From: Zygnema cylindricum
Lineage: Eukaryota; Streptophyta; Zygnematophyceae; Zygnematales; Zygnemataceae
Length of the DNA: 64,000 nt
Direction of reading: 5' to 3'
Assembly (NCBI GenBank): GCA_037447655.1
Contig: JBBHKE010001521.1
Coordinates: 210,177-274,176 of the forward strand
The notes beneath the pieces are model-generated. The model was given only the letters and a program-made list of their open reading frames with translations. It ran no database searches and was not told the DNA's origin. Position numbers and translations under genes: made by a program. This document shows positions 10,608 through 54,755 of the stretch, piece after piece. How positions within the stretch are numbered: position 1 is the first letter of the stretch; each line of letters starts with the position of its first letter.

Positions 10608-10612
10608 TTTCA

Positions 10613-26429: not shown

Positions 26430-27893
26430 CATTTATAAAGAAGTTTAATTCTGTGAAAGCTAATGGGTGTTTTGAAGAAGTAGACTTACAAGTTGGTAAG
26501 AAGGCGATTGACTTGAAGTGGGTTTTTAAGACAAAGACAGTTGCCTCGGGAGAAATTCTTAAGTATAAGGTTCGTTGGTATGTAAAGGATTACAACAGAA
26601 GGAGGGTATTGATTATTCAGAGACTTTTGCAACTGTGGTTAAGTTTGATTCTTTGCGAGCAATTATTGCAATGGCTGCGGTGGAAGGAATGCATATTCAA
26701 CAGATGGATATAGAGACAACTTTCTTAAATGGAGAATTAATTGAGGAGATTTATATGAAAATTCCATAAAGAGTTCTTGGAAAGAATGGAAAAGTATGGA
26801 GGTTGTGGAAGGCTTTGTATGGTTTGAAGTAGGCACCAAGAACATGGAACCATAAGATTCACAAGGTTTTACTAATTTTAGGATTTAGGAGGTTTTTTGC
26901 AGATTGTGGAGTGTATATTTGGGGAGAAGGTAGGGACATGGTAATTTTAAGTGTTTACGTAGATGATTTCATTTCTATCCCTCACAACTTGGATTTACTT
27001 GGAGAAATAAAGATAGAATTTCAGAATCATTTTAGAATCACAGATTTAGCAAATGCACAATACATTGTGGGAATTCAAATTCAGAGGAGAAGGGACGGAT
27101 ATATGAAGTTGAGCCAAGAACAATATGCAAAACAGGTACTGGAAAGATTTGGGTTTTTAGATTGTAAGCCACTTATAACTCCCCTTGATCCTCGTGACAA
27201 GCTTTCTAATTTTTTTAAAAGTCCCGAGGTTGATGTTCCGTATAGGGAGGCGGTCGGTAGCTTGATGTATTTGAGTGTCGATACTAGACCTGACATTAGT
27301 GACGCAGTGAGTGTTGTTAGTGGGTATTATGGTAATCCGAAAAAGGTACATTGGGAGGCGGTGAAGAGAATATTAAGGTATTTGGTGGGAACACTTAGTC
27401 TTGGAATAGTTTATAAAAAAGATGCAAGCTTGAGTTGTTATGGATATTGTGATGCCGACTATGGAGGGGACCATGATACCAGAAGGTCTACGTCAAGATA
27501 TGTGTTTTTCCTTGCAAGAGGAGCCATCTCGTGGAATTCCCGTTTGCAACCTACTGTGGCACTTTAATCTACGGAGGCGGAGTATATGGTCGCATGTCAT
27601 GCTGCGAAGAATGTTGTGTGGATTAAAGATTTCTATCGGAGGTTGGAGTTGAAAAAAAATGCATACAAATATTAAGAGAAAACTTGTCCTCCATTGCACT
27701 TAGCAAAAATCCTATTTTATATAAGCGCACTAAACACATTAAAATTCAGTGGCATTTTGTTCGAGATTTGGTTTCGGAAAAGGAAGTTGAATTTACGTTT
27801 GTACCCAAAGAAGAACAAGTTATTGATATGTTAACCAAAGCAACACTAAGAGAAGTTTATGAGATGGGAAAAAAACTAGTTGGCATGGAGTAA
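26430..27893 (+). pseudogene. Copia element H, reverse transcriptase and RNase H
   Basis: The plus strand reads LKWVFKTK and KYKVRWYVK, shifts frame, then IDYSETFATVVKFDSLRAII and MDIETTFLNGELIEEIYMK, shifts again, then VILSVYVDDFISIPHNLD with the YVDD catalytic pair, TDLANAQYIVGIQIQRRRDG and VPYREAVGSLMYL. RNase H begins near 27400 (GYCDADYGGDHDTRRSTSRY), has a TAA at 27565-27567 where Ser is expected, then STEAEYM, and ends FVPKEEQVIDMLTKATL at 27790-27850 with the terminal stop at 27891-27893. The enzyme copies element RNA into DNA. The 218-codon stretch at 26911-27567 is the best preserved part of the element. Confidence 0.85.
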
Positions 27894-29805: not shown

Positions 29806-30089
29806 CTACACCCTTTCCCTCTCCCTCTCTCTCCCTCTCCCTCTCCCTCTCCCTCTCCCACTCACCCTCCTCCCCCTCTCCCCCTCCCCTTCCCCCTCCC
29901 ACAACATCTCCCCTCCCCCTCTCCCTCTACCTCCCCCATCTCTCTCCCTCTCCCTCCCCCTCTTTCTCCCACTCACTCTCTCTCTCTGCACCTCCCTCTC
30001 CATTCTCTCTCACTCCCTCTCCCTCAGACTATCCCTATCCCTCTCCCTCCCCCTCCCCCCCACCCCCCCCCCCCCCCCCCCCCCCCCCC
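29806..30089. repeat. CT-rich simple repeat with terminal C-run
   Basis: CCCTCT/CTCTCC repeats run to 30058, followed by a stretch that is almost only C to 30089. Apparent Pro/Ser/Leu-rich frames here are compositional. The gypsy copy 1 remnant begins directly after it. Confidence 0.9.
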
Positions 30090-30149: not shown

Positions 30150-31241
30150 CTACAAAGTTCGAACTCCCTTGCTTGAAACTTTCACCACCTTCAAAATCAC
30201 CCGTCTGGCAAAGATGTTAAGCGTATCCTTCTTCTGTTGCATTCGATACACAAAGTCTCCCGGCATAAATTGTCCCTGTCGGGCACATAATTTCCCCTTC
30301 GACGCTGGGAATACCACAATTGATCCTGGTGTTGTGCCACCTGTAAATTCCACATGGCAAGAGGTATCTCTTGAGGGAAAATTTTGGCACGGTCGGCGAT
30401 CAGTTTTTCGACGGTTCCTTTCTCATCCATTCCAGGGAAGACCACCGCTTAGGCCGAAGCAACCCCGAGCAGAATAGGATGTCGTCCGAATAAAATGAAG
30501 TAAAGACTATAGGAGTGGAGAGAAGCCTGTCTGCTGAATTTGTATCCCATGGCAATCCAAGGCACCCTTTTGTCCCACTCTCCCAAGTCCTCTTCAACTG
30601 CATATTTTCGTAGTGACCGCTTCACTGTCTGTACGCACCTTTCGGCCAAACCGTCGGCTTAGGGGTGGTCGCGACTGGTAAGTCGATGGTTGATGAGGCA
30701 TTTCTCCAAAAGATTGGTAAATTCTCCGTCGAATTCCGATCCCTGGTCTGTCAGAACCTCTGCTGGCGCCCCAAACTGTGACAAGACTCTCTGCAGAAAG
30801 GCGTCGGCAATGGACTTGGACTCCTTTCGAGGCAGGACCACAAGCTCTATCCATTTTGAGAAATGTTCAGTTATGACCAGAACGAAACGATTCCCACGTC
30901 TGCTGGTCGGAAGAGGTCCCAAAAGATCCAAAGACCACCAATAAAACATTCCCCTGAAGGGAAGAGAATGGAGCAGAGTCCCGCCCTTTTTTGTCAAAAG
31001 CTGCCTTAACTCGATCACAGGAAGAGCAAGTCTGTACAATTCGGTTGACTTGGGCCCGCAACCCGTGCCACCAGTATGAGCCTGTAACCAAGGAAGTGGT
31101 TCGCTTCTGTCCGAAGTGTCCACATTGTTTATGGAGATTGGTGATCAGAGTTTCTCGATCTGAGGGAGGAGGAACCACTTTCCTAGTACCGTCTGACCAT
31201 TTGTGGAGGAGCACTCCTCGGTCCCATTCATACGCCACCAT
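30150..31241 (-). pseudogene. Gypsy copy 1, integrase
   Basis: The minus strand codes for a zinc-binding region (H..CGHFGQKRT ... CSSCDRVKA, 31241 to about 30990). After a frameshift near 31000 comes the core with WSLDLLGP, LTDQGSEFDGEF and LAERCVQTVKRSL, which carry D, D and E. A TAA at 30656-30658 occurs where HPQADG is expected. The C-terminal part (PGDFVYRMQQKKDTLNIFA, 30180-30290) resembles the GPY/F-type integrase tail. I see no chromodomain. The enzyme inserts element cDNA, but this copy is broken by at least one shift and one stop. Confidence 0.8.
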
Positions 31242-31262
31242 CCGGGTCTGAACTCGGGATAA

Positions 31263-31960
31263 TTAAATTCCAGCCAAATGGGGAAGAGGGGATCCCTGCT
31301 GAATATATTGGAGAGCTTTGGAGTCATTCCAAATATCTTTCCGTCCAGCTCCTATGGGTGCCTGCCCCTCAACATCTGCTGCAAAAGTTGAGAATTCCCC
31401 CCCAGATGGAGGAAGCCAAAGGAAGGCGGAGGATGCTTGAATGAGTCCCAAACTGATTTTCGGATCCTCGTTGTGCCAGCCCCGAAAATCAAGGGTAGAA
31501 GGATCAAGGTTTCGGCTTAGTCCGTCGGCATTCCCATGAATTTCCCCTGCCCGGTAGACAATGCTGAAATCATATTTCTGTAGGATATGAACCCATCTGG
31601 CGAGTTTGCTGGTCAACTTACTATTTTCCAGGATCCACTTCAAGGGTTGGTGATCGGTGATCAGTGTGAAATGGACCCCGTACAAATAAGGTCTGAAATG
31701 CTGGATGGCCCAAACCGCGGCAAGAAGCTCCCCATGATAACTACTATAATTCCCCTCAGCTCGGTTATTGCTCCGGCTGGCGTAAGCCACCACATACTCG
31801 GCACCTGCGTCGTTAACTTGAGCCAAAACAGCTCCCAATCTCAACTTGCTCCAATCAGTGTAAAGGAGGAAAGGCCTCTGGTGATCAGGCATCCGGAGCA
31901 CTGGGTGCTGCTTCAGGGCATCCTTTAAGAAATGGAAAGCAATTTGCTGTTCCTCGGCCC
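31263..31960 (-). pseudogene. Gypsy copy 1, RNase H
   Basis: A 212-codon minus frame reads PFLLYTDWSKLRLGAVLAQV, AEGNYSSYHGELLAAVWAIQ, PYLYGVHFTLITDHQPLKWI and YRAGEIHGNADGLSRN. These are the gypsy RNase H signatures with catalytic positions D (in YTD), E (in HGEL) and D (in TDHQ). The segment from 31901 to about 31960, in another frame, carries the connection from reverse transcriptase. It is continuous with the integrase after a short linker. Confidence 0.85.
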
Positions 31961-32930
31961 ACTACCATTCTTGATCTTTCCGTAATAGCTTATTGAGGGG
32001 CTGGGCCTGACTACTGAACTCGGGAATAAACTTGCGATAGTAGTTAGCCAGGCCGAGAAAGGTGCACAAAGCAGAATTGTCCTACGGGGGAGGAAGAGCG
32101 TCGAGGGCTGCAACCTTCACCATATGGGGACCCACTGTCCCACGAGTTACCTCATGTCCGAGGTAAATGATTTTTCTGCACCCCAAAAGTACCCTTGCCC
32201 GAGGGACATTTCAAGCCCGCTGCTTGAAGAGCCCGGAGAACGATCTCGATATGCTCTAGGTGTTCTTCAAAGGTCTTGGAAAATATTATCACATCGTCGA
32301 TGTAGCACCTGGCACAATCGATTCCTTGGAGCGCTTCGTCCATGGCCCGCTGGAACTTTTCTGGTGCATTCTTCAGTCCGAAAGGCATGTAAATCCACTC
32401 ATAAAGTCTGGATCCTGCTCAGAATGTCGTTCTCTCCTGGTATTTTGGTTCCATGGCAATCTGGTGGAAACCATTCTTCATGTCCAGTGTGGAGAAAATA
32501 GTGGCCCCAGCAAGAGAGTCGAATATCTCTTCCGGAGTGGGCATTGGGTACCGGTCAGGAATGGTGGCCGTGTTCAACATGCGGTAGTCCCCACACATCA
32601 GAAGTCCACAGTTTTCCCGGATGAATCTTTCTTATGAGGGTGAACTGTGGGGGAAGCAAACCCATGTAGTCCGGTACTTTCCTGAACCAACCTTGCGTCT
32701 ACCAAAGTTTGAACCTTTGCAGTAATAAACTCTTTCTCTTTCAAGCTGAGAGGATATTGTTTCTGCCAAACCGTTGCGGTTTCGTCGATCAAATCTATCC
32801 GGAAGGGGGTTCCTTTGTAGATTCCGACATCTGTTTCGGACCATGAGAAAACCTGAGTGTTTCTAGCCAAGAGTTCTGTTAGCTATTCTTTCTGCTGAGG
32901 GTCCAGCTGCTCCCCCAGATTCAAGTCCAT
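31961..32930 (-). pseudogene. Gypsy copy 1, reverse transcriptase
   Basis: Minus-strand segments in more than one frame give SWSETDVGIYKGTPFRIDLI, GLHGFASPTVHPHKKD, FSTLDMKNGFHQIAMEPK with a catalytic Asp, MPFGLKNAPEKFQRAMDEAL and CYIDDVIIFSKTFEEHLEHI with the catalytic YIDD. They appear in the order of fingers, palm and connection. One TGA replaces Trp near 32410, and frameshifts occur near 32600 and 32150. The frame starts at an A6 run (32930-32935) shared with the end of the methyltransferase frame, which it would enter by a -1 shift. Confidence 0.85.
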
Positions 32931-33880
32931 TTTTTCGGCTCGACCGCAGCCGAAGCTTCCGGTGGTCTTCCCCAGAGGTTGATGTCGAATTCTAGCACAA
33001 CCTGTGGATCTGCCACTATTCCTCCGAAAAATACTTTACTGCTGACAACTTCCGCTAAGCCGTCTCCTTTTGATCTCCCGTTCCCCCCCGCTGAAGGAAC
33101 TCTCGGGTGTAGAATTTTTCTCTTTTCTCTCCCCCCCTCAAGCTGCAAAGTTGCTTGCATGGACAAAAACTGTGGAGCTTGAAGGTAATTTCTGCGTGAA
33201 TCTGGAGCGTGGAGACTGGAATAGGCAAGAGCATGTTTTACAACCCATGTAATGGCATTTAAATCCATGCTTTGCCCTATGAGGCTGCACCGCTGTAGGT
33301 TTGAAATACCTGGTGCTGCCGTGGTTTCCGGATGAAATCCCATCGCGTGTTCTCGTTCCGTTATTGTTGGTGCTGTCCAAAGTCTTTCCTTGCTGTCAAA
33401 AATCATTCTAGCGGCTCCGTTCCGGTAGGCGTGACTGTGAGGAAAAGATACCAACGTGGGGAGTGCTCGACGCGGGAATCCTAGGATATTGCATTGGAAG
33501 AAAGGTGTGCGATCCGGTTTGGTTACAGGTGTCGCCATTCTCCCTTTTCGAAGTATTTGATGCACTGAAATCTGGGGGTCGGGGGTTTGTGTCTTTAACA
33601 GTTGCCAGAGGACAGGAAGAGGGATCATATTGGTCCAATATGGCCGGAGTCTGTGCGCTCGAGATCCCACTTGAGCAGCGTCAAAAACTAAGGGAGCTCC
33701 CAGAATACGGGTTACCTGATTCCAACTTTCTGCAACCTGCTTTCGTTTATCATCTCCCGGGTGGACATTCTCCAGAATGTACCCCACTGGGGTGTTTTGG
33801 AGCTGCTAAATCCACGATATCAATGTAATCATCTGATAGAAGGTTCCACTTCGGTGGTCCTGATGCCCTCTTCCTTGTCC
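32921..33880 (-). pseudogene. Gypsy copy 1, Dnmt3-like cytosine methyltransferase C-terminal half
   Basis: The frame open from 33787 down to TGA at 32921 starts VGYILENV, containing the ENV motif (motif VI). It continues with LVFDAAQVGSRAHRLRPYW (motif VIII-like RxHRxR followed by an aromatic, as in Dnmt3), a target-recognition region, ERLWTAPTITEREHAMGF (motif IX-like) and SLIGQSMDLNAITWVV (motif X-like). Upstream in frame is ITLISWI, then TAG where Gln is expected, then QLQNTPVGYILENV. Such enzymes transfer a methyl group from AdoMet to C5 of cytosine. Motif order I-IV-VI-VIII-X, taken with copy 2, is canonical and not the rearranged DRM order. The tail of about 100 residues before reverse transcriptase has no domain I recognise. 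Confidence 0.8.
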
Positions 33881-33948
33881 TGCATAAGACCCTCGAGGGA
33901 ATCAAAAACTGCGACGAGTTCACCCTAGAGCTCGCGTGTCTGAGGCCG

Positions 33949-33966
33949 GTATAACCTGGTTATACT
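33949..33966. repeat. Short palindrome GTATAACC-T-GGTTATAC
   Basis: Near-perfect 8-bp inverted repeat with a single-base centre, in sequence between the gypsy remnant and the N gap. No role is apparent. Confidence 0.5.
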
Positions 33967-34023
33967 AGGGAGAAGGACAGGAGACCGTTGACAATTTCTG
34001 TGTTTGGGGGCTGGGGGTCTAAA

Positions 34024-34033
34024 NNNNNNNNNN
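34024..34033. other. Assembly gap of 10 N
   Basis: Ten N bases directly before a GA repeat. True distance across the gap is unknown. Confidence 0.99.
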
Positions 34034-34148
34034 GAGAGAGAGTTAGAGAGAGAGTGAGAGACAGGAGAGAGTTAAAGAAAGAATTTGGTCGAGAGAGTGG
34101 CGAGAGTGATTGGTTGAGAGAGCTGGTTTAAGAAAGAAATTGAGAGAG

Positions 34149-34230
<82 letters not shown>

Positions 34231-34330
34231 GAGAGATTGAAATAAATATGGCGAGAGAATTAATGCGAGAGTGTTAGAGAGATCAAAAGACTTCGGGAGA
34301 AAGGATTGAGCTGAAGCCTCTTCAAGATTG
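34034..34330. repeat. GA-rich microsatellite
   Basis: Imperfect GAGAGA and an uninterrupted (GA)n block at about 34152-34226, with purine-rich sequence on both sides. Confidence 0.95.
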
Positions 34331-35216
34331 CACTCTGTTTTCTGTAACTCAAAATGGTCATTTTTGGGCCAAAGGTGGAGGGCAGCAGCCCTTTATGCTG
34401 CAATCCTTTTGGTTTTTTTTAGAGAAGTTGCACTAACCAATTTTTTTTTTTTGTTGCCCGTAATGCGGCTCCCCTCCGTGAGCCGTCGATGACGCGGGTT
34501 CGAAATCGAACGCATCCGCGTGATTCTAAAATGGTATGCGTCATCTTGGTGATGGCCGTCGATCTCCAAAGTCAAAAAAAAACTTTTTCGTAGAAACTTC
34601 GCCGCTCACTTTCAAAAAATCCCGCCGAAAATTTCCGGCTCCTCCAGCGGTCACGTCTTGGAGTACCACTGTCCCTCCGTACGGTCGATCCACCAAAACT
34701 TCGCAACAAGGATTTATATCGTAGCGAGTCCACAAACGATACTCGACAATATCGCTACGCACCTAGAATGGATCGAAAGAACGACACTCACTGTCTCATT
34801 GTACAAGCGCTTTAGCGCTTTCGTGATCAGAGGACAAAAAGTAAAAACCGGCACCTGATTAAGGCTATTTGCGGCATAGTTCAAAAGTAGGTGAAAGTAG
34901 GCCCATAGAATATGCCTATGATATGCAAAACATACAATATGACCTTAAGACCCATATTGTATTCGGACCTGTTGGACCAATAATACATTCAGAACAAAAA
35001 TTGGACCAATTAAAACATTTGGACAAAAAAAATATATTTTCACCGTCAAATTCAGAAGATCGGACAGTCGCTGATCAAAGTAGCGATCTAAGAAGATCAC
35101 ATGAAAATCCCATAACACAACTTACGATAAAGGAGCCGACCAAAGGCCTACCATTAAAACGCCTGCTTTATAACTATAATTTGCGCTAATAACAATTCAC
35201 CGTGCATGCCTGCATG
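34331..35216. other. Intergenic, no gene recognised
   Basis: Unique-looking sequence with T-runs at 34410 and 34442 and a tRNA-like GGTTCGAAATC at 34498. A terminus resembling the mariner-type motif (CGCTAATAACAATTCACCG) occurs at 35185-35203 without a visible partner. Confidence 0.4.
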
Positions 35217-35224
35217 GTACAGCT

Positions 35225-35811
35225 CAGAGGTCGCAAAAGTCAAAATTTTACATAATCGAAACCGACCGTTTTTTTTTTTCAAAATCTGAGTAACCGACAA
35301 CCGACCGGGTTATGTCACGCACCAAAATTGTTAACCGTTAACCGACCGGCGTTTACGAAAATAAAAGTTAACCGAAACTCGATTTCTCGCGACTAACCAT
35401 GCCCGCCCGTAACTGAAAAAGTACAAAATTACAACGCTCATTGTTATTAGCGTTAATGTACTTTGCAATAATGTACGACGTATAAATAAGCCAATAATTA
35501 CGATTTGTCGCGTTCCCTAAGATTTGTGAAATGAATAGTGTTACTATCGTGTTAGATTTGGGACGCTAATCATGATGTCACGTACTTCCACGATACCAAA
35601 GTGTACAAAGTACAATAATGTTGAATTGTATCAACAGTACAAAATTTTCAATATTTTTGGTTAACCGACCGTAACCAACTTTTTTTTCTGGTGAATCAAC
35701 CGGCCGCAACCGCCCGACCCCCAAAATTTGGCAACCGAATCCGTTCCAGATCCAGCGCGGGCGGTCGGTTAACGGTCGGTCACTATTTCGGTTGACCGTT
35801 TGCGACCTCTG
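35225..35811. mobile_element. Non-autonomous hAT-like element
   Basis: 587 bp with terminal inverted repeats CAGAGGTCGCAAA and TTTGCGACCTCTG. Its 8-bp flanks are GTACAGCT (35217-35224) and ATACAGCT (35812-35819), equal at seven positions. The CAGAGG terminus and 8-bp duplication are typical of hAT transposons. No transposase is encoded. The left half recurs at 57251-57487. Confidence 0.8.
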
Positions 35812-35982
35812 ATACAGCTCGAAAGCGATATTAGCATCACTTGAAACATCTACTGTAGTCTGCCCGATTTTATATTTGACGGTCGCGATGGAAAGAAGTG
35901 GATACTACACTGCAGTAACTTGTCTCTAACAGTCCAAAGCAAACGGCAACCGGACATGTTGGCACGGAAAAAAGGTTCAGTA

Positions 35983-36618
35983 CACCGCTAATCGTTATTA
36001 GCGTTAATAACACTATTTTTGTCGCGGTATTTTCCGGCCCGACATTAAATTAGTGTTACCAACATTAAAAAATAATTAGGCAAATATGAAAAGTAATTAT
36101 TTAGTGTTAAGCCTTTATACTACGTTTGTCAAAATTAGTGTGATGTATGAGAAGCTTGTTTTCGTACATCGTGTCCACGTGCCATCTCATTTATACAATA
36201 TTAATTGATTTTCGCATGGAAATTACACTTCAATACCAGTTAGCGGCAGAAAGAGCGGAACATACAAAGCATAAAATAGCGTAAATTTTACTCATTTTAC
36301 ATGTTTCCTTCATCTCCCACTCCCCCTCACGCCCCCTCTCTCTTCCCCTCTCTCCCTCATCTCCCTCTCGCTTACCTTTTCAAAACCCCACAACTACTTA
36401 ATTTGGCGAAAGCTGTCAAGGTAGTACACTTGTACTTGAGATAGTCTTGATGACAACTCAGCGTAGATGCTACGAAGTTGAAACAGGAATTGGATTTAAG
36501 TGCCAAATTAATGTTATTGATTTTTTTTCTTTTCGACACAAAATCATAAATTAACCTTACTAACACCAAATTAGCGTTTGCGTTATTTTTTCTTTAACAC
36601 TAATAACAATTAGCGGTG
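35983..36618. mobile_element. Mariner-like MITE, 636 bp
   Basis: Terminal inverted repeats begin CACCGCTAATCGTTATTAGC and CACCGCTAATTGTTATTAGT, alike over 25 bases with two transitions, flanked by TA at 35981-35982 and 36619-36620. A CT-rich tract at 36307-36368 lies inside. It encodes no transposase. Confidence 0.8.
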
Positions 36619-37641
36619 TAGTTATTAGTGTTCTGTATCGAATAAAGATAAATACCAATAATTATCAGTTATTGAACGATGAAGGGTCGTGGTATATCCC
36701 TCAAGAACCAACAAATGTTTTATCGCCGCTAAGCAAAGGTCACAATCGGGTACACAAACATGGTTGTACCCGAATGTGATTTTTTCCGTTTTTGAATAAC
36801 CCAGCCGAATCTGGCCGGCCCCCAATATTTGAAATCCGGATCCATTCCGAATCCGATGCAAACCGTTTGTGTACGGTTCGGGTACATATTTGAGTACCGG
36901 ATTGTGTAAAAGGGCAAGATAGTAACCCACAACACACTATAAGGCACAGCGGAAAGACTCCAAGGATCCCCCAGTAGCAAGAACAAAAGTACACAGCACT
37001 CATAGATAAAGGTCCAACTTTATTAATCAAGAGGAAGATTACAAGTTGACAGCTCACTGTAAAGGTCTACTCAAAGAGTCTGTCTTTTATTACGCCTGTC
37101 CCACTATTTAAACTAACTAGCTGCTAGTGAACTTAACACTCTACAAGTGTACACGTGGACCTTCACGGTCAACCGAGATCTATCCAAAATATATTTCTAG
37201 AACTATACAGTTAAATTTACATTCTTCGGCGTTGCTACACTGCCACAGTGCGCTGCTATGCTACGCTACGCTATTCTACTTAGTTGCTATGTTACTATGT
37301 TGCGCTGATCTAGAATCGCAGCAGCGCTCCTCCGCAACCACAACCATAGCAGTCTGGTCTCTAGCCCTTAAGTACTCAACTCTGTAATGTCAAGCGTGCC
37401 CGAGAATCCCCGGGAAGGGCCCACAGCCTGGGGTAGTTGGCCTCGGATTCCTGCAAAGAACCCCCCCCCCCTCCAAATGCGAAAGGCTTCCCAAAATAAT
37501 GATCATGCCCCCTGCTGACCCCCCATCTTTCCCATAGATATGCATACAAAGATAGGAGAGACACCGGAACCAGGAGTAAGAGAAAGTGCATGGGGGGGGG
37601 GGGGCGAAAAGATCTCGTTTCCCCCTTCCTTTCCCATTAGG
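36619..37641. other. Intergenic, unassigned repeats
   Basis: 36745-36902 has imperfect inverted ends CAATCGGGTAC and GTACCGGATTG around a CCGAATCCG-rich body. 37000-37400 may be LTR sequence of the gypsy lineage, but I could not prove it. G-runs and C-runs occur at 37454-37470 and 37592-37604. Confidence 0.35.
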
Positions 37642-38262
37642 TCAGGGAAAGGGATTCACTGGTGTGTCCTGGAGCTGCTGAATCCACGATATTAATGTAA
37701 TCATATGGTAGAAGGTGCTACTCCTGCGGTCTTGATGCCCTTTTCCTTGACCTGTGAGGGAGTATCCATGACAAGGCGATCCTACCACAACCAGATCAAT
37801 TCTGCCCAGATTTGCTAAATGGGGTGCCATAATGTTATCCACATTCTGGGGAAGACTCCGGTGAGCTTTGGAAATGGAAGACACGGGAAGCTGTTGAGGA
37901 AATAGGCGGTGCAGCTGATGAAGTCGATGTTCGCTGACAACTTGTGCTTCCGGCGAAATCTCCACTGTTGTATATGACTCCACCCGATATCGTGCTTTCA
38001 AAACTGCTTCCAGATCGGAACTGATTCTTGAAAATAAAGATAAAATCCAAAGTCCGGTGTCGGGGACGGTCAATGACACCACTTGTCGATTGAAGTCCTT
38101 GTTACCTGTCTTGGTTGGGAAAACATCTGACAGGGTGGTCGAATCTATTTTCGGTAATAATAATAAGGCTGAGAATGCCTGATCTACTCTTTGCCGGAGT
38201 TTCGTTACCTGCAATAATCTATTTGTGTATTCCCCTTCCCACCGCTTGGAAATCGGGAATTG
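37642..38262 (-). pseudogene. Gypsy copy 2, Dnmt3-like cytosine methyltransferase N-terminal half
   Basis: The frame reads LWILSLFSRISSDLEAVLKA at the AdoMet-binding motif I and GRIDLVVVGSPCHGYSLTGQ at motif IV, with the catalytic Cys encoded at 37771-37773. FYHMITLISWIQQLQDTPV then leads toward motif VI, where the copy ends. Dnmt3-family enzymes have a similar layout: LFDGIxTG, then GSPC, then a stretch before ENV. Motif I here is altered (FSRISS for FDGxxTG), which may be decay or divergence. The frame joins the protease in register across a TAG at 38263-38265, so the enzyme was likely released from, or fused within, the Pol polyprotein. Confidence 0.8.
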
Positions 38263-39840
38263 CTAGATGTCTCCTGCGATATCTATTGAACTGTCGAACA
38301 ACTCCGCCGGAGAGGATGTGGAATACACTGGGTAACAGCCAGACACAGGAACATTGGTCTTTTCCCAGTTCCATAAATCCAAAGGAACCACAACTTTGGT
38401 GCCTTCGGGATTTCTGGGGTCCCGAACTGTACATTGCTCTTTCCAATCACTTAAACTCATATTCATCCGGGTCCAAGTAGCCATTCCCAACAGGATTTCA
38501 AACTGATTCCCTTCTACCACTAAGAAAGGAAGTTCAATTTTCACCTTCTGTCAAGCATCATCGGAGAATTCAATGTTCATGGCTTTGATGATTCCATGGA
38601 CGGGCTGATTGTCGCCGCTGACCGTGCTTAAGCAGATGTTACTTGGGCAAATTTGGGGTCTGAGTTCACCCGACATTTTCTGCAATGCGGAAGTGGTGAT
38701 AAGGTTTGGAAGTGCTCCGGTGTCGACCACATCGTCTTGGTACCCGCTGTACCCATTAAGCTTGAAGTTGCCCGTCCGGTTCAGAATGAGCGCTACAGAC
38801 AAGGTTTTGTAGTCCATATCCACCATAGGGGTTTTAGGCTCTGTTCACAAATATACCGTCGTGGGTGTTGTTGCCCGGTTGACTTTTTCCTTGCCCGAAT
38901 GAATTTCTTCTCCCAAGGCCTGAATGAGGATATCTTCGGGCAAATTATGGGAGGAAGCGAGGGTCTTAACATGAGTCAAGGCATATGGCATAAGGTGCCG
39001 GACTAGCATGACAGCAGGCTTTGAGGAAGGGAGTGGGGCTCTTGGGGATGAAGCCAGCGAATCTGGCTCGCGATCCTTTTCGTTCCCCTCCTTGTAATCA
39101 CTTTCAGAACCGGAATCGGGCATTGGTGGAGTTTTGGGTGCCCCCTCGTCCGGACGTTCGCCCATGAACCGTTCAAACCAATCTTGAGTGCTTTGTTTGT
39201 CCTCTTCCAGTGATTTCTTCTCCTGCTGTAGTTTCTTGCTCTTGTAACTTTCGAAACCGGGAGGCAGTTTAGGCTTAGGAGGAGGAGGAGGAGGTTGGGT
39301 GGGCTTGATTCCAAGACCTGTGTCACTGTTCAGCACTACTGCCCGGGGCGTGAAAGATAAAGGCCCGATGGCCTTCCGGTTGTGGTCCATCTTGCTCATT
39401 TTCTGCTTGTCTCTCCTTTGATCAGAGGTTGAAGAGCGGAGTGGTCTACGACCATCTCCCACTCTCACATTCCACGCTCCGTGAAGTAAACTGCTAGCAT
39501 GGTGGGCATTTGGGGGTTCCAAATCCCAGCCCATCATCTCATCTTCGTTAGCACCCGATGTGCTTTGAAGCTCAAGCTCCGCTAGCTTTTGTAGTAACTC
39601 TTGCTTCTGTCTTTGTAGTCGTTGCCCTGCCGTAAGAGGAGCAAGCCGGTAAGTCGATCCCAAACGAAGAGCAGCCAATTCTGCAACCATGGCAGCCATC
39701 TGCTGACTCTGCTGTTGGATTATTATCTCCGGTGTAAGTCTTGCTGGAGCAGTCGTTAATTGTTTTGGTGTCACTGGTGTAGGCAGCACTGGGCGCTCAA
39801 GGGTAAAGGAGTTGTAGGGGAAGAGGGTTAACGGCTGTCT
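38263..39840 (-). pseudogene. Gypsy copy 2, linker and aspartic protease
   Basis: A 314-codon minus frame (39789-38845) is a Gln-, Pro- and Lys-rich linker with PTQPPPPPPKPKLPPGF and an acidic segment. After TGA at 38845-38847 the same frame continues through DDVVDTGALPNLITTSALQK, carrying the protease triad D-T-G, and NQPVHGIIKAMNIEF. After another TGA at 38551-38553 it reads FLVVEGNQFEILLGMATWTR, where the ILLGM resembles the second conserved protease block. The protease would mature the polyprotein. It is directly followed by the methyltransferase in the same register. Confidence 0.8.
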
Positions 39841-41193
39841 CTCCTCCTCCCGTGAATAGAGCGAATTGCATCATTTCCTTCGGGATCTCGTTCTTCCGGA
39901 AACATTGCCCCTCCTTATGCCCCATAAAACCACAGGCCTCGCATTTGTGACCCTCAGTGGTATACTTGCTCCGAATCTCGTTGGAGATCTGAGCATCGTC
40001 AAACTTTAGCAGTTTGATTTGCCGCAGTTGGGACAGGGACATTTTCGAAGTTTCGCTCGGGGAGTGGGTCGGTAATTGTTCTTCGTGACCGGTGTTCTCT
40101 CCCCCCCCCCAGCTCCTTTGAGTCGTTCTTCATGCTGCTTCTGGCTCCTTTCTGAACGCTCTACATCCCATTCTTTCAGCTTGAGGGCTAGCTCCGGTTT
40201 GAGTTTCCTGCTGCAGCGTTTCCATCCATGTCCTGGTTGTTGACAATTTAGGCAATTGTACAGAATTACCCGATCGTCGGCCCCCATTGCAGGTTCTGGC
40301 CCGCTGTCAACAGCTTGCTTCCCTTTAAGCTTCCGCAAAGCTTGGAGTTCCGCTTGTTCTTCCCCACTTAAGGAAGTTTCCCCGGTGAATCCTGCAAAAT
40401 TTGCTTTTGCCTTGCCGGTCACGGATTTTTCCCTCGCCTCACTGTGAACAAAGTGGTCGTATAACTTCATGGCCACCAGGGATATGTCCTTGGCCAAGGG
40501 ATTTATGTTCTAGATTGCTTGTCCTGCAATCCAGTTATCGAAGGCAGTCTGCCTCGTCGGTCCGAAGGAATTACGAACAGCAATGAAATACTTCGTAGCC
40601 ATCGCAGGAAGATCAATGGTTGACAGCTTAGTTTTCTGGCACAGGCTCCATAGACGGTTGAAGAGAGTCTGGGGTGTCTCGCTCTTTAAGCATCGGAATT
40701 TCGTGAATTCCTTGATGGCCGATTCGTTCCTCTCTGTGTAGAGGAGTCGCCAAATATTCAGAAGGGTGGTGCATGGAGTGGGATTTGCCAGCATGCGTGT
40801 TGCTGCCCGAGCTGCTTGAATAGCTTACAGCTGGTTAACATAGGCCCTTCCTTGGGCATGGAGCTTTATATCATCGGTGAATGTGGCTGTCACAGGGGTG
40901 GCCGCCGCTGCCGTTAAGTCAGCCTCAGCTTGTAAAACGGCCGCATCAAGAGTGGGATTGGAGATCTTGATGCTAAGGGCCATCAAAAGAGGTTGACGCT
41001 CCTTATAGTCTGCCAACGCCCCTCTAGAGAGGTAGTTGACCATCATGGGAAAGAGAGTCGTCTCGAAGTCATCCGGCACTGCTCCTCCCCTGTATTTATT
41101 GATTTCCGATTGGGTGAAAGATTTCCACAACAGCTCGAAATCTGAGAAAGCGATCCCCGAGCTGTCCCCTGTAAAAATTCGGATATCCCCCAT
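39797..41193 (-). pseudogene. Gypsy copy 2, capsid and zinc-knuckle Gag
   Basis: The minus frame from 41193 (MGDIRIFTGDSSGIAFSDFE) runs to 40006 with TAA at 40825-40827 and TAG at 40510-40512. It has a capsid-like helical region with TLFNRLWSLCQKTKL, then a first knuckle CLNCQQPGHGWKRC of C-X2-C-X4-H-X4-C form, and CPCPNCG. After a one-base shift near 40020 a second knuckle CEACGFMGHKEGQC follows at about 39900-39950. Two knuckles, with a Cys cluster between, are more than most gypsy Gags have. Gag forms the particle and binds RNA. Confidence 0.75.
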
Positions 41194-43121
41194 TTCTTTC
41201 CTTTCTTCCGGTGATTGGGTGAACTGAGAAAAGGAAAGGCCGGTGGGACTAACGTTCTGTGCCGGCGAAGTAACCCCTTTGTCCTCTTCTTCGGGATCGG
41301 TACTGCCTTCTCCTTTGGTAAGAGATGCTGCATTGCGAGGCGTGGATACTCCTCCCGCAGAGGAAGTACCAACCCCTGAAAGGGTGGCTGAGGAAGGGTA
41401 TTCCTTACGCGAAGATTTCTTGGCCCCCGGTGAGCAAAGGGTATCTGCGTTGGAAGACTTGTCTCTCCTGATGTAGTGGAAGGAAGGGCGCGCTCCCCTT
41501 CGTTTACTCCTCTATATCCACGGGAATACCTTTCGTCCTGAAGAACTGTTTCCTCTGAAGGGATGTGGATCCGAGGTCTATTCAAAGGTTGATCTCCGGG
41601 CAGAGATGGAGAAGAAGACGACAAAGGCCAGTTTTGAGGAGAAGGAGTTCGTCTTCGGAGACGAGTCTGTTTCCGAGGCCGTCTTCGGGCAGTTTCAGGA
41701 GGAGGAGTTCCGAAACTGGAGGATGGGGAACGCCTGTGCGGAGGAGAGTAGACGTCTGGCTTGTAGGGTAAATTCAGCGGACCTGGGGACCCACGGTCGG
41801 CTCCATTAAAGGAAACGGAAGGAGAGGGAGAGGAGATGGGATTGTCTCGGGGTCCTCCTGCCGGAGCCTGGGAGTGGGAAGTAGGAGGACGAGGAGGGAA
41901 AGGAGGAGGATCACGGGACAGTCTGGGTGGAGGAGAAAGAGGTGTAGACAGTCTCAAGGGGATGTGAATTCTTTCGTCCGATCGTAACTCCACTAAGGCC
42001 TCAACAGCTTCAGAAACCTCCACCGAAACAAAAGTAGGCTCTTTGCGTGGAGCCGCTTTGAGTTCAGACGGTAAATTTGCACCCAAACCCCCAATATAAG
42101 GTCTTGTGTCTACCCCCTCTTCCCACAGAAGAGGAGGTTCCTGACCAATCTCCGAAGGAGGAGCCTGGGGTGGAGCTCCAGGCGGGGGTTCCGCTACTGG
42201 TGTTGGAGGGATCCGCCCACTGAGGATCCCACTGGACCTCCACCTAGCTCTCCGGATGAGATTCAATTTCTGCTCCCACAACTTTCTCCGTTCTTCCTCC
42301 AAAGCTTCCCAATCTACTGTGACGGGTCCAGTCCCCGCCGTAGCCGAGCCCTGAGATTTTAAAATTTCCACTAGTTCCTTAGCCCTTTCCACTACTCCGG
42401 TCAGATCAGCTATCCCTGCTCCTAGAATTTCTGGATCTGTAGGCCTGGCTCTAAACAATCCCTCGGACAACTCTTCTGGTTCGGTTTCCGGAACCTCTGG
42501 GTCAGTGGGTTCGGGTCGCCAGAACCCTCCGTCAGGGCGGACCCGGTGTGCCGGAGGGGTAGATCTCTCGGTGGAGACTGGCACTGGCGTTGGGGAAGGT
42601 TCTTCCTTGGGAATAGGTGCAAATCTACCCTTACTATCCCTGTGGTCAAACTTCTTTCCCCTCCCCGGCTCTGGAACCCCGCTATCGCTGCCACCTGCTC
42701 TCCTACGAGACCTCGAAGCTGGGCGCCCCCGGGACGGTCGGCTTACTGCAGTGTCTTGGGAAGAAGATGGAGGAGGGCGAGAAAGAGGAGCCATCCTCGG
42801 CCTTTCCTGCAAGGATTGTGAGGAACCACTCTCTGAAGAGCTACTTAGAATCTCCACCACCCCTCCCACTGGTTTAACCACCCGTGGTCGATTCGACCGA
42901 GACAATCTTTGCACCAACTCCTGCTTAACCTTCAGTTCGTGAAGATCATGAAGAGCAAGGAGTTCCTTTCGACCAGGGCGGCTGGGATCCATCAAAACCG
43001 CAGGGTCAATCTGAATTTCAGTCCTGGGAATCTTTGATCTGGTGTGAAGCCCGACCTCCGGAAGGGGACTCAAAAGGGGCTCCCGCTGAGCTTGCCTCTT
43101 TGGCCTGGCCCGGGGTAACAC
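41043..43121 (-). CDS. Gypsy copy 2, long Pro/Ser/Arg-rich Gag-region frame
   Basis: A 692-codon minus frame with no internal stop. It is rich in Pro, Ser, Arg and Glu, contains repeated SP and PPP clusters, and has a short coiled-coil-like segment near WEALEEERRKLWEQKLN. It has no known domain and is probably intrinsically disordered. Its end overlaps the capsid frame by about 150 bases in another register, and its start is linked to the N-terminal frame by a -1 step at an A6 run. It may be a Gag extension or a separate accessory product. That it is unbroken while the neighbouring parts have stops is notable, although GC- and Pro-rich frames survive longer by composition. Confidence 0.6.
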   Translation of the reverse strand: MLPRARPKRQAQREPLLSPLPEVGLHTRSKIPRTEIQIDPAVLMDPSRPGRKELLALHDLHELKVKQELVQRLSRSNRPRVVKPVGGVVEILSSSSESGSSQSLQERPRMAPLSRPPPSSSQDTAVSRPSRGRPASRSRRRAGGSDSGVPEPGRGKKFDHRDSKGRFAPIPKEEPSPTPVPVSTERSTPPAHRVRPDGGFWRPEPTDPEVPETEPEELSEGLFRARPTDPEILGAGIADLTGVVERAKELVEILKSQGSATAGTGPVTVDWEALEEERRKLWEQKLNLIRRARWRSSGILSGRIPPTPVAEPPPGAPPQAPPSEIGQEPPLLWEEGVDTRPYIGGLGANLPSELKAAPRKEPTFVSVEVSEAVEALVELRSDERIHIPLRLSTPLSPPPRLSRDPPPFPPRPPTSHSQAPAGGPRDNPISSPSPSVSFNGADRGSPGPLNLPYKPDVYSPPHRRSPSSSFGTPPPETARRRPRKQTRLRRRTPSPQNWPLSSSSPSLPGDQPLNRPRIHIPSEETVLQDERYSRGYRGVNEGERALPSTTSGETSLPTQIPFAHRGPRNLRVRNTLPQPPFQGLVLPLREEYPRLAMQHLLPKEKAVPIPKKRTKGLLRRHRTLVPPAFPFLSSPNHRKKGKKWGISEFLQGTARGSLSQISSCCGNLSPNRKSINTGEEQCRMTSRRLSFP

Positions 43122-43456
43122 TCGGTTTCTTTTTTGAGCCTGTGCTGTGGACTCCTTTCTTTCCTCGGCAAAGGTTCTGGGGCCTCCGCCAAAGAGGGAA
43201 AATGTTCAGGAGTGAGGCTAGAAGGAGATGGGGGCGAAGTTTGTGGTTTGGGTGGTTTTGGAGGAGTCTCAACCCTAACAGGCTCAGGCATCATCCCCTG
43301 GAGAAACCGCTCTATGTTGGCAGACGAGGTGAAAAGGACGGATTCTTCAAGAACCTGTGACTCTTCTTCTGATACCACCGCTTCTTGATTCGCCTGTTCT
43401 TCCGGCCTGGCATCGGAGAGATTCTTATCTTGAGCTTCACCTCCCCCCATGATGAC
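43070..43456 (-). CDS. Gypsy copy 2, Gag N-terminal frame
   Basis: From ATG 43456 (MGGGEAQDKNLSDARPEEQ) the frame codes for an acidic then Pro-rich segment including PEPVRVETPPKPPKP and ends at 43070. An upstream ATG at 43492 is in frame but less likely as a start. At AAA AAA (43130-43135) a -1 step would enter the 692-codon frame. No function can be assigned from sequence alone. Confidence 0.55.
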   Translation of the reverse strand, partial: VIMGGGEAQDKNLSDARPEEQANQEAVVSEEESQVLEESVLFTSSANIERFLQGMMPEPVRVETPPKPPKPQTSPPSPSSLTPEHFPSLAEAPEPLPRKERSPQHRLKKETECYPGPGQRGKLSGSPF

Positions 43457-43492
43457 GAAGGTCGCGAAAGAAGAATTAATGACAGAAAACAA

Positions 43493-45100
43493 TACTCGCT
43501 TACGCCAAGAGAGCTTCTAAAGTCAAAAAGCTCCTATCCCCTCTAATCCGAAGGAGACAGGGGCTTTTCAGTATTGTGTTTATTCCACGGGAAGTCTATA
43601 GCATTCGTTCCCTCAAAACCCACTGTTTCGATACAAGGAAATTGCAGTTTTACTCCGGGAAGTCCACGCCTAAGCAAAAGAGACTACAAGTGAAGACACA
43701 AATGCACTACCACGTGGACATATAAAAATAAATAGGAATGGTTGTTTCAGATTTAACAATATCACCTTGACCACAGAGATAAAATATAAGATGGAAGATA
43801 TAAAAGATGGCGAAGCAAGCTTAACATACCCCGGCAATTTACGATGACAATGTGAGAAAGGCGAAATCTCTCCCGATGGCAATGTAAATAGGTATGGTAC
43901 TCCTTCAACCCTCGGTGTCCGCAGCTCTGAACCGACTAGACTCTTCTCAGTTTCAAGCAGCGAAAAATCCAAAAATCACCCAAAGGGACGGTAGTGCCAA
44001 CCACCAGCCCGAACTATGATTCCCAAAATGGACAAATCCAAAACAGAGATGGCAATTTAGTCAAACAAAACAAAGATTCTCCAAAAGAAGGTTTGTTGGA
44101 ATTTCTGAGGGTTTTCACAGGAGACAGTACTGAAAAGTAACCTGTCTCCTTCGGCCCCAAGCGCCTTATACATCAAAGTTTGTCCAAAATCAGGTCCAAA
44201 AGTCAGAACTATGCTATGAACCAATGAGCGGCAAGCAAGAGCAATCGAACTGACAGAGGACAAAATAGTCCGTACTACACTTGGGGCAAAAAGTTAGACA
44301 TCTGACTACGGCTAGATCCGCGGCCGGAAGTTATTATTTGATCCGCAGTTATAAGCCAAACCACAAAGAAAAGGACACGGAAGTGCCAAGCTTTGACTGA
44401 AGGTAATTAATAGACCGCTGGTCAGCTGGACCTGAACTGAATTGCTACAGACAGCTAACAGCATAAGCTAGATTACAGTCCGGAAGTCTACGTGGCAATC
44501 CACAATGTACCCCCCACTAGGGCTGGTGGAAGCTAGTACTATGCGACGGAACTGCGATCTTTGAGACGGTAGAACTTTGTCGTCCGGCCTCCGTTAGGCG
44601 CGAAATAAAGTGCGTCTGGTTCAGTTGAGGAAATACCATAATCCTTCTGGCTGGTTGTGCTAACTTTTCCGTACTCTGAGAACAGTACGGGTAGGAAGGG
44701 TACGGAAATCCTCGGTAATATAGAAGTGTGCCTGAAAAGCACTCGAGCTTGCAGGAAACGACAATTTTCAGCGACAAAAATTTGCTGTTGTAGATTCAGC
44801 GACGAAAAAACACGTCGTTATATCTACAAAATTACATTTTTATTTAACAACATCTTTGATACGTAGTAAGCTGCCGACTACCAATGAGAATTCCTCACTT
44901 CGCCGACGAACCAGCGACGACCTTGTGTCGTCGTTAAGCCGAGAAAGATGAATAGCAATCACAATGGCGATATCAGAAATACCAAATGGACGACTAAAAG
45001 TCGAATTTAAATTCATTTTGTGAAAAAACGGAGAGAAATATTAAATTCACACTTTCATGAATAATAAAATAAAAAAAAAACAAAACATTGTGGCACCCAA
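43493..45100. other. Region upstream of gypsy copy 2, LTR not delimited
   Basis: No supported gene. It should contain the 5' LTR and primer binding site of copy 2, but I found no clear TG...CA pair or primer site. A 28-bp inverted repeat around CTGTCTCCTTCGG is at 43541-43572 and 44127-44157. Two hairpins of the CGACGAC/GTCGTCG type occur near 44766-44812 and 44915-44933. Confidence 0.4.
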
Positions 45101-46514: not shown

Positions 46515-46688
46515 TTAAAAAAAATATTATTGTTTAAGCGAAAATATTGAAAAAACACATTTTTGGACGTGAACCACAACCAAAAAGACGCTCTTTTATT
46601 CAGACCTTAACCCAGACAGTCCAACTGTAAAATAGTCCAATATTTACAGTTAGAAAATTGAACCGTTGGCCCTACAACTTAAAAACTC

Positions 46689-46985
46689 ACATTCGAGCGA
46701 CGACAGAATGTCGTCGCTCGTTCGACTCTATTCGAGTTTCCAGATATTGGTTCGACGAAACAACGTCGTTGTCCGCGAATGACATTCGAGAATACCATCG
46801 TTCGATAATTTGAATTAATGTCGTCGCTTGTTTGGTCTAAAGGACGAACCATTGTCGTCGGTCATTTGCACTTTCGAACCAACGAGGTATCCTCATCCAT
46901 TAAATTATGTTTGTCGTATCCATCATTGAAGTGCCGACATGGTGTCGTTGCGTCCACCGCGACAAAGACACGTCATCGCTAGTAC
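46689..46985. repeat. Cluster of GTCGTC/GACGAC hairpins
   Basis: 46694-46720 is a perfect 11-bp stem (CGAGCGACGAC / GTCGTCGCTCG) with a 5-base loop. Partial copies of the motif recur every 35-60 bases up to 46985. Similar motifs occur at 44.9 and 49.1-49.4 kb and in the LTRs of elements G and H. Confidence 0.7.
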
Positions 46986-47236
46986 GCTGTCGCCATAAAT
47001 AAATCGCAAGACACTCGGAAAATAATACTAAAAAACAACAAAACAATGCAAAGTAGTCAACAACATAGAAAAACTCGCACTAATGGAGAGTTAGTGAGAA
47101 GTCAGTATGGAGTTTGAGAGAGAAAGGCGACGTTCAAAAATAGTTTTGTACAAATAATTTAAAAGCACAACAAATTTAAAATATAACAACACATTGTGAA
47201 TGACAATAATAACATAAAAGGAAGGAGGAAACGAAG

Positions 47237-47662
47237 TCAATTAATAAATGGGAGAAAGTTTGCTTGAAAGGGCTTACTTGTACCGTACACTCCGGTAAAA
47301 TGCTTGGGATACTTTTTTATGGTCCTTGGAATGAGTTCAGCTGAGCCGTTATTTTCACAGTCCTTCAACATCCAGTGTATCACTCGCATCCGAGTTGCCT
47401 TAGTGGACATGTGTTGAACTTTACGGTGGGAGACACGTCCTCTGGTATTGGTCGAAGACGGAAAAAAACCTTCCACAATGGCCGTCGGGTTTACCGACGT
47501 TTCGATTTCCGCCTCACTCTCATCCTTGTTCGGAAGTGCGTTTTCCTCGTCGTTCCTCTCATTTTCCTCATCTTGTTCAACCTGAGCGTTATGGGGATTG
47601 TTGGTTTTATTGGTCGGGTTGGCGCCCCAAATTCTATTAAGGGTCCACATACTCTCAAACAC
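47237..47662 (-). CDS. Unknown exon Y1 (acidic region plus basic domain)
   Basis: A 141-codon minus frame begins MFESMWTLNRIWGANPTNKT, passes an acidic segment, and contains RMRVIHWMLKDCENNG followed by RTIKKYPKHFTGVYGTSK. The second paralogue Y2 at 49673-50042 shares the WM..DC..NG...LI.RTIKK.P.HFTG pattern. Just after it the DNA reads CAA|GTAAGC, with a good 5' splice site at 47277, and Y2 has the same site. The real exon likely ends at 47278 and the final codons are intronic. The family is unknown to me. The basic patterned block could be a DNA-binding domain of a transposon protein. Confidence 0.45.
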   Translation of the reverse strand: MFESMWTLNRIWGANPTNKTNNPHNAQVEQDEENERNDEENALPNKDESEAEIETSVNPTAIVEGFFPSSTNTRGRVSHRKVQHMSTKATRMRVIHWMLKDCENNGSAELIPRTIKKYPKHFTGVYGTSKPFQANFLPFIN

Positions 47663-49577
47663 TTAATATCACCTAAAAAATAAGAAGTAGGAGCACCCGA
47701 AAAGAAAGGAAATGGCAACCTAAGCAAATGAGGAAGAAGGAGCGATGGTGTTGTTGCCATTATCACAAATACCTTTATATAATACACGAAATGCAAGTGA
47801 AAATGATTTTGCGCGGTAATATGTGAGGGAATTGCCATTTTGAATTTTTCGTTTAAAATCCAAATTTTGAATTTTAGCATGGCTTTCAATTTAAAAAAAT
47901 ATCAAAACGCGGGAATAGAAGCGGGATCTCGTAAATATTTGCTTCAAAATTGCCAAAATATTTCAAAACTTACGTCGTCGGTGTAATTTACATAGCGCCA
48001 TAGAAACACCTCCAGCTTACATGTTATACGGCAAAAAGATGATTGGAAAAAATGCGGCGTCGTTACCCCGGCAATCGGTTGTTCTAACGTCAGCTATGAA
48101 ACGCGACCAACTTTGGGAATGCGTGGATGATGAACATGCCACGTGTTTTCGGCAACAACCAATGATAATCTTACGACGGCGCATGATCAACTTTCGTCGC
48201 TGGATTACCGCCAATTAGAATTAACATGTATCCTAATATGTGTTTTTTGGTGGTTTTACGTTCAATTAGAATTAACAGTGATACTAATAAGAGGTTGGTT
48301 TGACGTTTGATCTAAGTAAACGCATTCTTATTAGTCTTAAGACCCAATATTAAAATGCATTGATTCTAATAGAACAACCCACCGGGCACCTAATTAAGAT
48401 TAAGGGTCCTCATTTAACGTCACATAACATTCATTCTCTCCGCGAACGACAAGGAAATGAAAATCAATCACTGATTTCAATGTATGTTATGTGGAACGAA
48501 ACGTAAACATATAGTACCTCCCGTTATAGTTTCGTTCATTGTACAATACAAATCTAACTGAATGAACATATTGAAATTGTACGGTTTCATAGCGTTGTAA
48601 CGTAACTGCGTTTTACAGCCCGATGCATAGATTCGACTATACGACGTGACAATGAACGTTTCGCATACGTTATACTCGCACCTATTATACTGTAATCATA
48701 TTCACCGCGTGCGAAACAAACGCTTATTAGAGTCACGAATGAACTTTAAGTGAAAGTACACATACCCGTACATTTCGACGGTTTTTACTCGTACCTATTT
48801 TAGTGTATAATTATGCACGGTGCAATGATTGTATATTCGCAAACCCAAAATAGAATTATGGAATTTTATAGGGGACGACGCCACATCGTACGGATTGTCA
48901 GATTTTGTACTTCTGCCTATTTTACCGTATATGCTACGACGGCGGATCATTTATACCCAAATCAGCGTTATGGAGAAATTACAATTGAACATTTTTTTGA
49001 AAATGGTATTGATACACAAATTAGAGTACATGACACTAATTCATTATATACAATAATAATTTCTATACGCTAATAACGATTCATGGTGTACTTACTATAT
49101 GTATGGTCGTATACGGAAGAATTTCGTCGCCTCCCCGATGCGTTCGACAATTCCAACGGTGGGGCGACGAAACGAAACAATGAACCCCACGTTTCTTTTA
49201 CCACACGGTTTGAATATTGGACGTCGTCGCCTCTTCGACATTTCTTTAGAAGTTAGGTTACACTAACACCTACACGATTAATCGGCATGAAGTCTTTTTT
49301 GGAAACTCCCAACATTAAGGCGACGACGCACTATCGTCACCTCTTCGGTTTCTCTATTATTTGCTGAAACTCCAACGTGGTACCCTTAAATTCACCACAT
49401 TCAGGCGACGACCCCATGTCGTTGCAGGTCCATAGGTTTCTACTCACAACAAAAATCAATTGGACGACATTGCACAACCAACGATCGTAACGACACGAGG
49501 TGGACGGGGGATATAAAAGGCCGTACACAAACATGCAATATGAGGTAGAAACAATTCAATATAAATAATGAAATAAG
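47663..49577. other. Intergenic with one MITE terminus and GTCGTC motifs
   Basis: A mariner-like terminus CGCTAATAACGATTCATGGTG ends at 49088 next to TA. Its last 70 bases resemble the end of the MITE at 22400-22598, but the other end was not found. GCGACGAC/GTCGTTGC-type hairpins lie at 49120-49420. No supported gene. Confidence 0.45.
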
Positions 49578-49672
49578 TCAAATTCCGTTACAAAAAATAG
49601 GAAAGAACGACACACAAATTAGGCAATCGTGGTTTGTTATATGAATGTAAAGACAATGGTAAAAACTCTTAC

Positions 49673-52152: not shown

Positions 52153-52179
52153 GGGGTCACGTACGATGATCGTACATGG

Positions 52180-54531: not shown

Positions 54532-54755
54532 CATGGTAGGCACTATTCTATCGCATTGTACATGGTATTGTAACATATTGTACCCAAAATCGTTAACGAT
54601 TGGTTTAATGATGTTTGTACATAATAGGTACAATACTTTAGCATTATACATGGTATTGTACAAAAACGAAAGGCCCTTGGCAACCAAAGGGCCAAGCACT
54701 GGGTCGTCCTTGACTATTTTTAACTATATGATTATTTTTTATAATATGTTTCACA

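What the first reader, a model, noticed from the sequence alone, without database searches (positions are those of the whole stretch)
32921..43492. Ty3/gypsy retrotransposon carrying a Dnmt3-like DNA methyltransferase between protease and reverse transcriptase
Copy 2 has protease (VDTGA) followed in the same reading register by methyltransferase motifs I and IV (GSPC). Copy 1 has ENV, RAHRLR and the C-terminal motifs followed by reverse transcriptase. About 95 diverged bases are shared at the two break points, so together they show one domain in one place in the element. Methyltransferase capture by retrotransposons is known in charophytes and dinoflagellates. Whether this lineage is one of those is open. 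An element that can methylate its own DNA could change how the host silences it.
Basis: partly seen in the sequence, partly recalled or inferred. Interest (0 to 1): 0.9.

Follow-up and report, generated by a model that had tools for sequence, protein, structure and literature searches.

The report
Gypsy retrotransposon encoding a Dnmt3-like methyltransferase
This stretch holds decayed copies of a jumping gene that carries its own Dnmt3-like DNA-methylating domain between its protease and reverse transcriptase; the unnamed host genome holds many more copies, one of them recent, and the kind was already known from a green alga.

Summary
On the minus strand, gag, protease and the first half of a Dnmt3-like methyltransferase (MT) share a frame (41511-37642); 3.8 kb on lie the second MT half, Ty3-type RT, RNase H and integrase. 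Host-genome copies prove the order: of 20 loci chosen by MT, 18 have RT after MT, and 9 of 9 of the window's subfamily have protease before it. One copy of another subfamily has a single 2,395-codon frame between identical 931-bp repeats, so it is recent. Repeats run A-coding-B-A-B, as published for KnitGypsy-Dnmt3 of Klebsormidium (PMC5890265). MT is under purifying selection (dN/dS 0.13-0.51 in the 13 unsaturated pairs of 42). Not seen in nine paper searches: relatives with MT between RNase H and integrase, a subfamily with EC for the catalytic PC (11 of 11 loci), and a palindromic B1|A2 junction. The unbiased search for MT-less relatives did not complete.

The parts
43706..44326 (-). 5' terminal repeat, A-type (part)
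   Evidence: 74% over 635 columns with the A repeat of the genome copy on C1374; no partner repeat found inside the window
40006..43448 (-). gag region, several stops and frame changes, one CCHC-like knuckle
   Evidence: ORFs; 40006-41511 is 72% identical over 442 aa to L014 and L016; ATG at 43448 read from the sequence
38269..38844 (-). aspartic protease (VDTGA), one TGA inside
   Evidence: Asp_protease_2 only E 0.11; 77% identical to the stretch before MT in L014 and L016; that stretch of L016 scores E 6.4e-4, below cut-off
37657..38115 (-). MT N half, motif I (altered) and IV (GSPC), copy 2
   Evidence: PF00145 24.2 bits, cut-off 22; 44% to P0021; 81-82% to L042 and L043
37657..37754 (-). 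98-base stretch shared with 33785-33882, end of copy 2
   Evidence: 84.7% identity
33883..37656 (.). sequence between the two copies; other repeats and a 10-N gap at 34024-34033
33224..33889 (-). MT C half, motifs VI (ENV), VIII (RAHRLR), IX-X, copy 1; one TAG
   Evidence: 20 homologues; 47% to P0021; best other genome copy 91%
32152..32957 (-). linker and Ty3/gypsy reverse transcriptase (broken frame)
   Evidence: PF00078; 57% and 78% to P0021
31263..31961 (-). RNase H
   Evidence: PF17917 2.3e-35, PF17919 1.8e-33
30284..31262 (-). integrase zinc-binding and DDE core
   Evidence: PF17921 1.4e-16, PF00665 3.3e-12; tblastn with P0022 and P0024 to 30284
30063..30089 (-). run of 27 G, candidate polypurine tract, where copy 1 ends
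   Evidence: read; genome copy L012 has a G-run at 9329-9340, at the start of B1

Best explanation
Two truncated, decayed copies of a Ty3/gypsy-type retrotransposon family with split direct repeats (A-coding-B-A-B) whose Pol carries a Dnmt3-like cytosine-5 methyltransferase between protease and reverse transcriptase and, in some copies, a PHD finger after the integrase. Shown: domain order, repeat order, purifying selection on MT, a recent insertion. Inferred: MT is made as part of Pol, enters the particle, and methylates the new cDNA before or at integration, so that the new copy arrives already marked and is handled as resident DNA. Also inferred: integrase cuts at the palindrome GACAGCTGTC where B meets A in a two-repeat circle and trims two bases, giving TGTC...GACA ends and a 4-bp target duplication. 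The confidence given is for identity and anatomy; I hold cDNA methylation at about 0.4 and the palindrome cut at about 0.35.
For: Dnmt3 class: profile search of solved structures DNMT3A 3.8e-17; next 4onj/4onq 'DNA methyltransferase' 1.9e-8, DRM2 3e-7, M.HhaI 1.5e-6, DNMT2-type 1e-5; no DNMT1 among 51 sequences at E 0.01. Order: RT after MT in 18 of 20 loci; protease before MT in 9 of 9 window-type loci; one 2,395-codon frame. Catalytic Cys in 11 of 11 rows that cover it, window included. MT dN/dS 0.13-0.51 in 13 of 42 pairs, the rest saturated. A repeats 931 of 931 identical, B 99.6% of 243. Palindrome once in each of 5 of 12 loci scanned, on 5 of 6 contigs, both subfamilies; TTGG on both sides of the C1344 copy.
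Against: No activity data. The yeast test of the K. nitens MT in PMC5890265 showed no methylation and was called inconclusive (section 10 read). Subfamily B has EC for PC in 11 of 11 loci. Target duplication: exact in 1 of 4 copies checked, 3 of 4 bases on C449, none on C1374 and C1042. In an 11-row tree human DNMT3A falls with phage enzymes, not with the retro MTs (83/88, long branches). Protease and CCHC matches are below Pfam cut-offs, and PHD is below it in L014 and L016. No call shows where MT acts.
Confidence: 0.9

Rival explanations
1. MT works not as a catalyst but as a nucleic-acid or chromatin-binding part of Pol (packaging, strand transfer, or with the PHD finger as a tether for insertion).
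For: Subfamily B has Glu for Pro in the PC motif in 11 of 11 loci while the Cys is kept and MT stays under purifying selection; P0024 has SC.
Against: Subfamily A keeps PC in 9 of 9 loci; the Cys is kept in B as well.
Confidence: 0.25
2. MT acts in trans on host DNA and shifts the host's methylation, rather than on the element's own cDNA.
For: Many copies (133 scored of 1,678 first-look candidates for the window C half) could supply enzyme; de Mendoza et al. discuss this for Symbiodinium (PMC5890265, section 11 read).
Against: The K. nitens methylome was plant-like in that paper (section 9 read); a Pol-fused enzyme is expected to sit mostly in particles (inference).
Confidence: 0.2
3. The window holds one element split by a 3.8-kb insertion with a 98-bp target duplication, not two copies.
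For: The halves meet at the same 98 bases and together make one element.
Against: 9 of 15 differences at codon position 3 (p 0.03); 98 bp is long for a target duplication; a gap lies inside.
Confidence: 0.25
4. Host gene or processed pseudogene placed by chance next to a retrotransposon.
For: Broken frames in the window.
Against: Same order in 18 of 20 loci and in metagenome proteins P0021 and P0024.
Confidence: 0.01

Closest known systems
KnitGypsy-Dnmt3 of Klebsormidium nitens (de Mendoza et al. 2018, PMC5890265; first seventh of the text and sections 9, 10, 11 read)
   Same: Gypsy domain set, Dnmt3-related MT in the Pol frame, DIRS-like repeat arrangement (their Fig. 4 legend), purifying selection on MT
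   Different: The place of MT within Pol is not stated in what I read; PHD finger, EC subfamily, junction palindrome and target duplication are not mentioned there; the genome here is 352.8 Mb, larger than K. nitens as I recall it
SymbioDIRS-Dnmt3 of dinoflagellates (same paper)
   Same: Dnmt3 in Pol with RT, split repeats
   Different: Tyrosine recombinase in place of a DDE integrase; another retrotransposon class
Ty3
   Same: Nearest solved RT to relative P0021; same Pol enzymes
   Different: No MT, ordinary LTRs (recalled)
Orchid Gypsy elements with an AlkB-like 2-ODD domain (PMC9289625, abstract start and passages seen)
   Same: Gypsy element that captured a nucleic-acid-modification domain
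   Different: m6A RNA demethylase type, in an additional open reading frame

Membership tests
Ty3/gypsy retrotransposons | Pol order protease, RT, RNase H, integrase (integrase last) | tested here: met
   protease by similarity and motif, its Pfam score below cut-off
Ty3/gypsy retrotransposons | RT closest to Ty3 | tested here: met
   relative P0021: Ty3 RT 4ol8 first, 7.3e-34; window RT itself not searched there
Ty3/gypsy retrotransposons | paired LTRs with TG..CA ends and short target duplication | tested here: inconclusive
   window: no pair found; C1344 copy has TG..CA ends and TTGG duplication but repeats in the order A-coding-B-A-B
Dnmt3 methyltransferases | unpermuted motifs I-IV-VI-VIII-X with catalytic Cys, nearest to DNMT3 | tested here: met
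   window motif I altered
Dnmt3 methyltransferases | monophyly with cellular eukaryotic Dnmt3 | tested here: inconclusive
   11-row tree put human DNMT3A with three phage enzymes (83/88) and the six retro MTs apart (100/98); long branches
Dnmt3 methyltransferases | cytosine-5 methylation activity | not testable with these tools
   -
KnitGypsy-Dnmt3 | Dnmt3 in the Pol frame of a Gypsy element | tested here: met
   L012, L014, L016
KnitGypsy-Dnmt3 | DIRS-like A-coding-B-A-B repeats | tested here: met
   of 6 contigs looked at: C1344, C1374 (with an extra B), C449 and C1042 show the order, C1407 only B-A-B, C544 only A and B before an interruption; not visible in the window
KnitGypsy-Dnmt3 | sequence monophyly with the K. 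nitens element | not tested
   its sequence was not at hand

The most novel reading that the evidence does not exclude
A family of Dnmt3-carrying Gypsy elements, wider than printed, in which the captured MT sits at either of two places in Pol (before RT, or between RNase H and integrase), is paired with a PHD reader, and in one lineage has changed the catalytic PC motif to EC under selection; and whose integrase cuts at an internal palindrome of a two-repeat circle, which would explain how a DDE integrase can live with DIRS-like split repeats.
Probability: 0.35. Interest if true: 0.75.

Novelty: new member of a known kind. Interest (0 to 1): 0.5.

Why it matters
Retrotransposons are main targets of DNA methylation; elements that keep a selected methyltransferase of their own make it testable what methylation can do for the parasite. 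A host genome with many copies, some with open frames and one with identical repeats, offers natural variation (PC against EC) and recent insertions on which to measure it.

Tried and rejected
Single element split by an insertion: kept as a rival. First protein search with the MT N half: 1,945 candidates, none at E 0.001. Viral contigs and prokaryote contigs: no relatives at that sensitivity; the tool says that records near the window's genome may be left out. Structure of the C half alone: pLDDT 44, not used; the P0013 model (mean 51) is confident mainly over residues 41-130 and 161-180, and its Foldseek TM-scores on the query side are 0.26-0.37. Rfam and tRNA scans of the window: nothing. 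Trees of four to five rows for MT, RT, RNase H and integrase, to tell one capture from two: too weak. The larger MT tree groups P0022, P0023 and P0017 with subfamily B only at 82/90. Initiator-tRNA primer site: no better than chance. Pfam on 10 other window frames to find host genes: hits in 3 of 10, all transposon domains.

Full report
What is in the window. The minus strand from about 44.3 to 30.06 kb holds parts of a Ty3/gypsy element. The frame 41511-37645 has 7 stops in 1,289 codons against a shuffle mean of 61 and reads gag, protease and MT N half, with a stretch out of frame near 40 kb. After 3.8 kb of other sequence with a 10-N gap come MT C half, RT, RNase H and integrase. The halves overlap by 98 bases, 84.7% identical, with 9 of 15 differences at codon position 3 (p 0.03), which favours two element copies over one element with a duplicated target.

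What the domain is. The N half passes PF00145; the C half does not match it. The C half finds 20 metagenome proteins. A profile of 13 rows (11 of those proteins and the two window halves) against solved structures ranks DNMT3A/3B first (3.8e-17), then 4onj (1.9e-8), DRM2, M.HhaI and DNMT2-type enzymes, with no DNMT1 among 51 sequences. Foldseek of a relative's model shows DNMT3 in all 50 rows listed of 108 at E 0.001 or better. Motif order is unpermuted, unlike DRM. Phage enzymes are also similar (208 records), and in an 11-row tree human DNMT3A falls with phage enzymes rather than with the retro MTs (83/88, long branches), so descent from a eukaryotic Dnmt3 is likely but not shown here.

Contiguous relatives. 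A search for long proteins found four. P0021 carries MT then RT in one frame and spans both window halves. P0024 has MT-RT-RNaseH-integrase-PHD. P0022 and P0023 have MT between RNase H and integrase, with a PHD finger at the end (P0022's PHD and MT and P0024's MT score below Pfam cut-offs).

Copies in the host genome. The genome (352.8 Mb, 2,689 contigs, unnamed) gave 123 PF00145 places, 123 scored of 782 candidates, and 149 rows for the window C half, 133 scored of 1,678 candidates, the best other copy 91% identical. By my reading of that table 12 rows besides the window's own cover query 1 to at least 290 without a stop in the match. Of 18 ten-kb loci taken around MT hits, 16 have RT after MT on the same strand; L025 and L027 show no RT in the stretch. 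With L042 and L043 it is 18 of 20. Some are near-identical (L012 and L013). MT between RNase H and integrase: 0 of 20. Protease upstream: 9 of 9 loci of the window's subfamily A. The loci were chosen by MT, so they cannot show how many relatives lack it. L012 encodes CCHC (below cut-off), protease (DTGA, E 0.012, below cut-off), MT, RT, RNase H, integrase and PHD in 2,395 codons; L014 and L016 hold MT to PHD in 1,525 and 1,520 codons, their PHD below cut-off.

Repeats. On C1344 the A repeats (931 bp) are identical, and a 243-bp B lies before and after the 3' A at 99.6%: A-coding-B-A-B, the order that de Mendoza et al. give for KnitGypsy-Dnmt3. The order is also seen on C1374 (with an extra B), C449 and C1042; C1407 shows only B-A-B and C544 only A and B. 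C1344 ends in TGTC...GACA with TTGG on both sides; C449 has TCAT/GCAT; C1374 and C1042 have no match. GACAGCTGTC occurs once in each of 5 of 12 loci scanned (L012, L013, L015, L026, L033, on 5 of 6 contigs); it lies at the B1|A2 junction where I read it (C1344, C1374, C1042, C449). That an integrase cuts there is inference.

Selection. MT dN/dS is 0.13-0.51 in the 13 of 42 within-subfamily pairs that are not saturated (stop codons skipped; three rows had 1-3); RT in the same pairs is 0.03-0.39 where defined (12 of 13). MT changes faster in protein: L012 against L015 dN 0.157 for MT and 0.040 for RT; L014 against L042 0.202 and 0.035. Subfamily B has EC for PC in 11 of 11 loci; subfamily A has PC in 9 of 9.

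Literature. Nine answered searches led to PMC5890265 (first of seven parts of the text, sections 9, 10 and 11), and PMC6338049, PMC12344493, PMC9033089 and PMC9289625 (passages only). Of these, PMC5890265 describes such Gypsy elements first-hand. A passage of PMC12344493 says Copia where the 2018 paper says Gypsy. I saw no mention of the RNase H-integrase position, the EC motif or the junction palindrome in what I read; the library is open-access only and no supplements were read.

Noticed in passing
P0022, P0023 (metagenome proteins): MT lies between RNase H and integrase, with a PHD finger C-terminal to integrase: a second site for MT in Gypsy Pol.
   Followed up: partly
L012, L013, L015, L017-L022, L024, L029: Catalytic PC motif of MT reads EC in all 11 subfamily B loci.
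   Followed up: partly
window 30150-33882 and 37657-43448: CpG observed/expected 0.67 and 0.65 in the element copies against 1.05 between them and 1.28 at 46600-60000, without a matching TpG/CpA excess.
   Followed up: no
window 10611-12474 and 23711-25799; RT at 26833-27567: Repeated stretches, 82-85% alike, with Copia-type gag-pre-integrase and RVT_2 domains in or near them.
   Followed up: no
window 35225-35456 and 57251-57477: A 230-bp repeat at 88%, one copy inside the stretch between the two element copies.
   Followed up: no
C1374 31305-37084: B repeat occurs three times around a 3.7-kb stretch between coding part and B-A-B end, as if another element or a recombination lay there.
   Followed up: no
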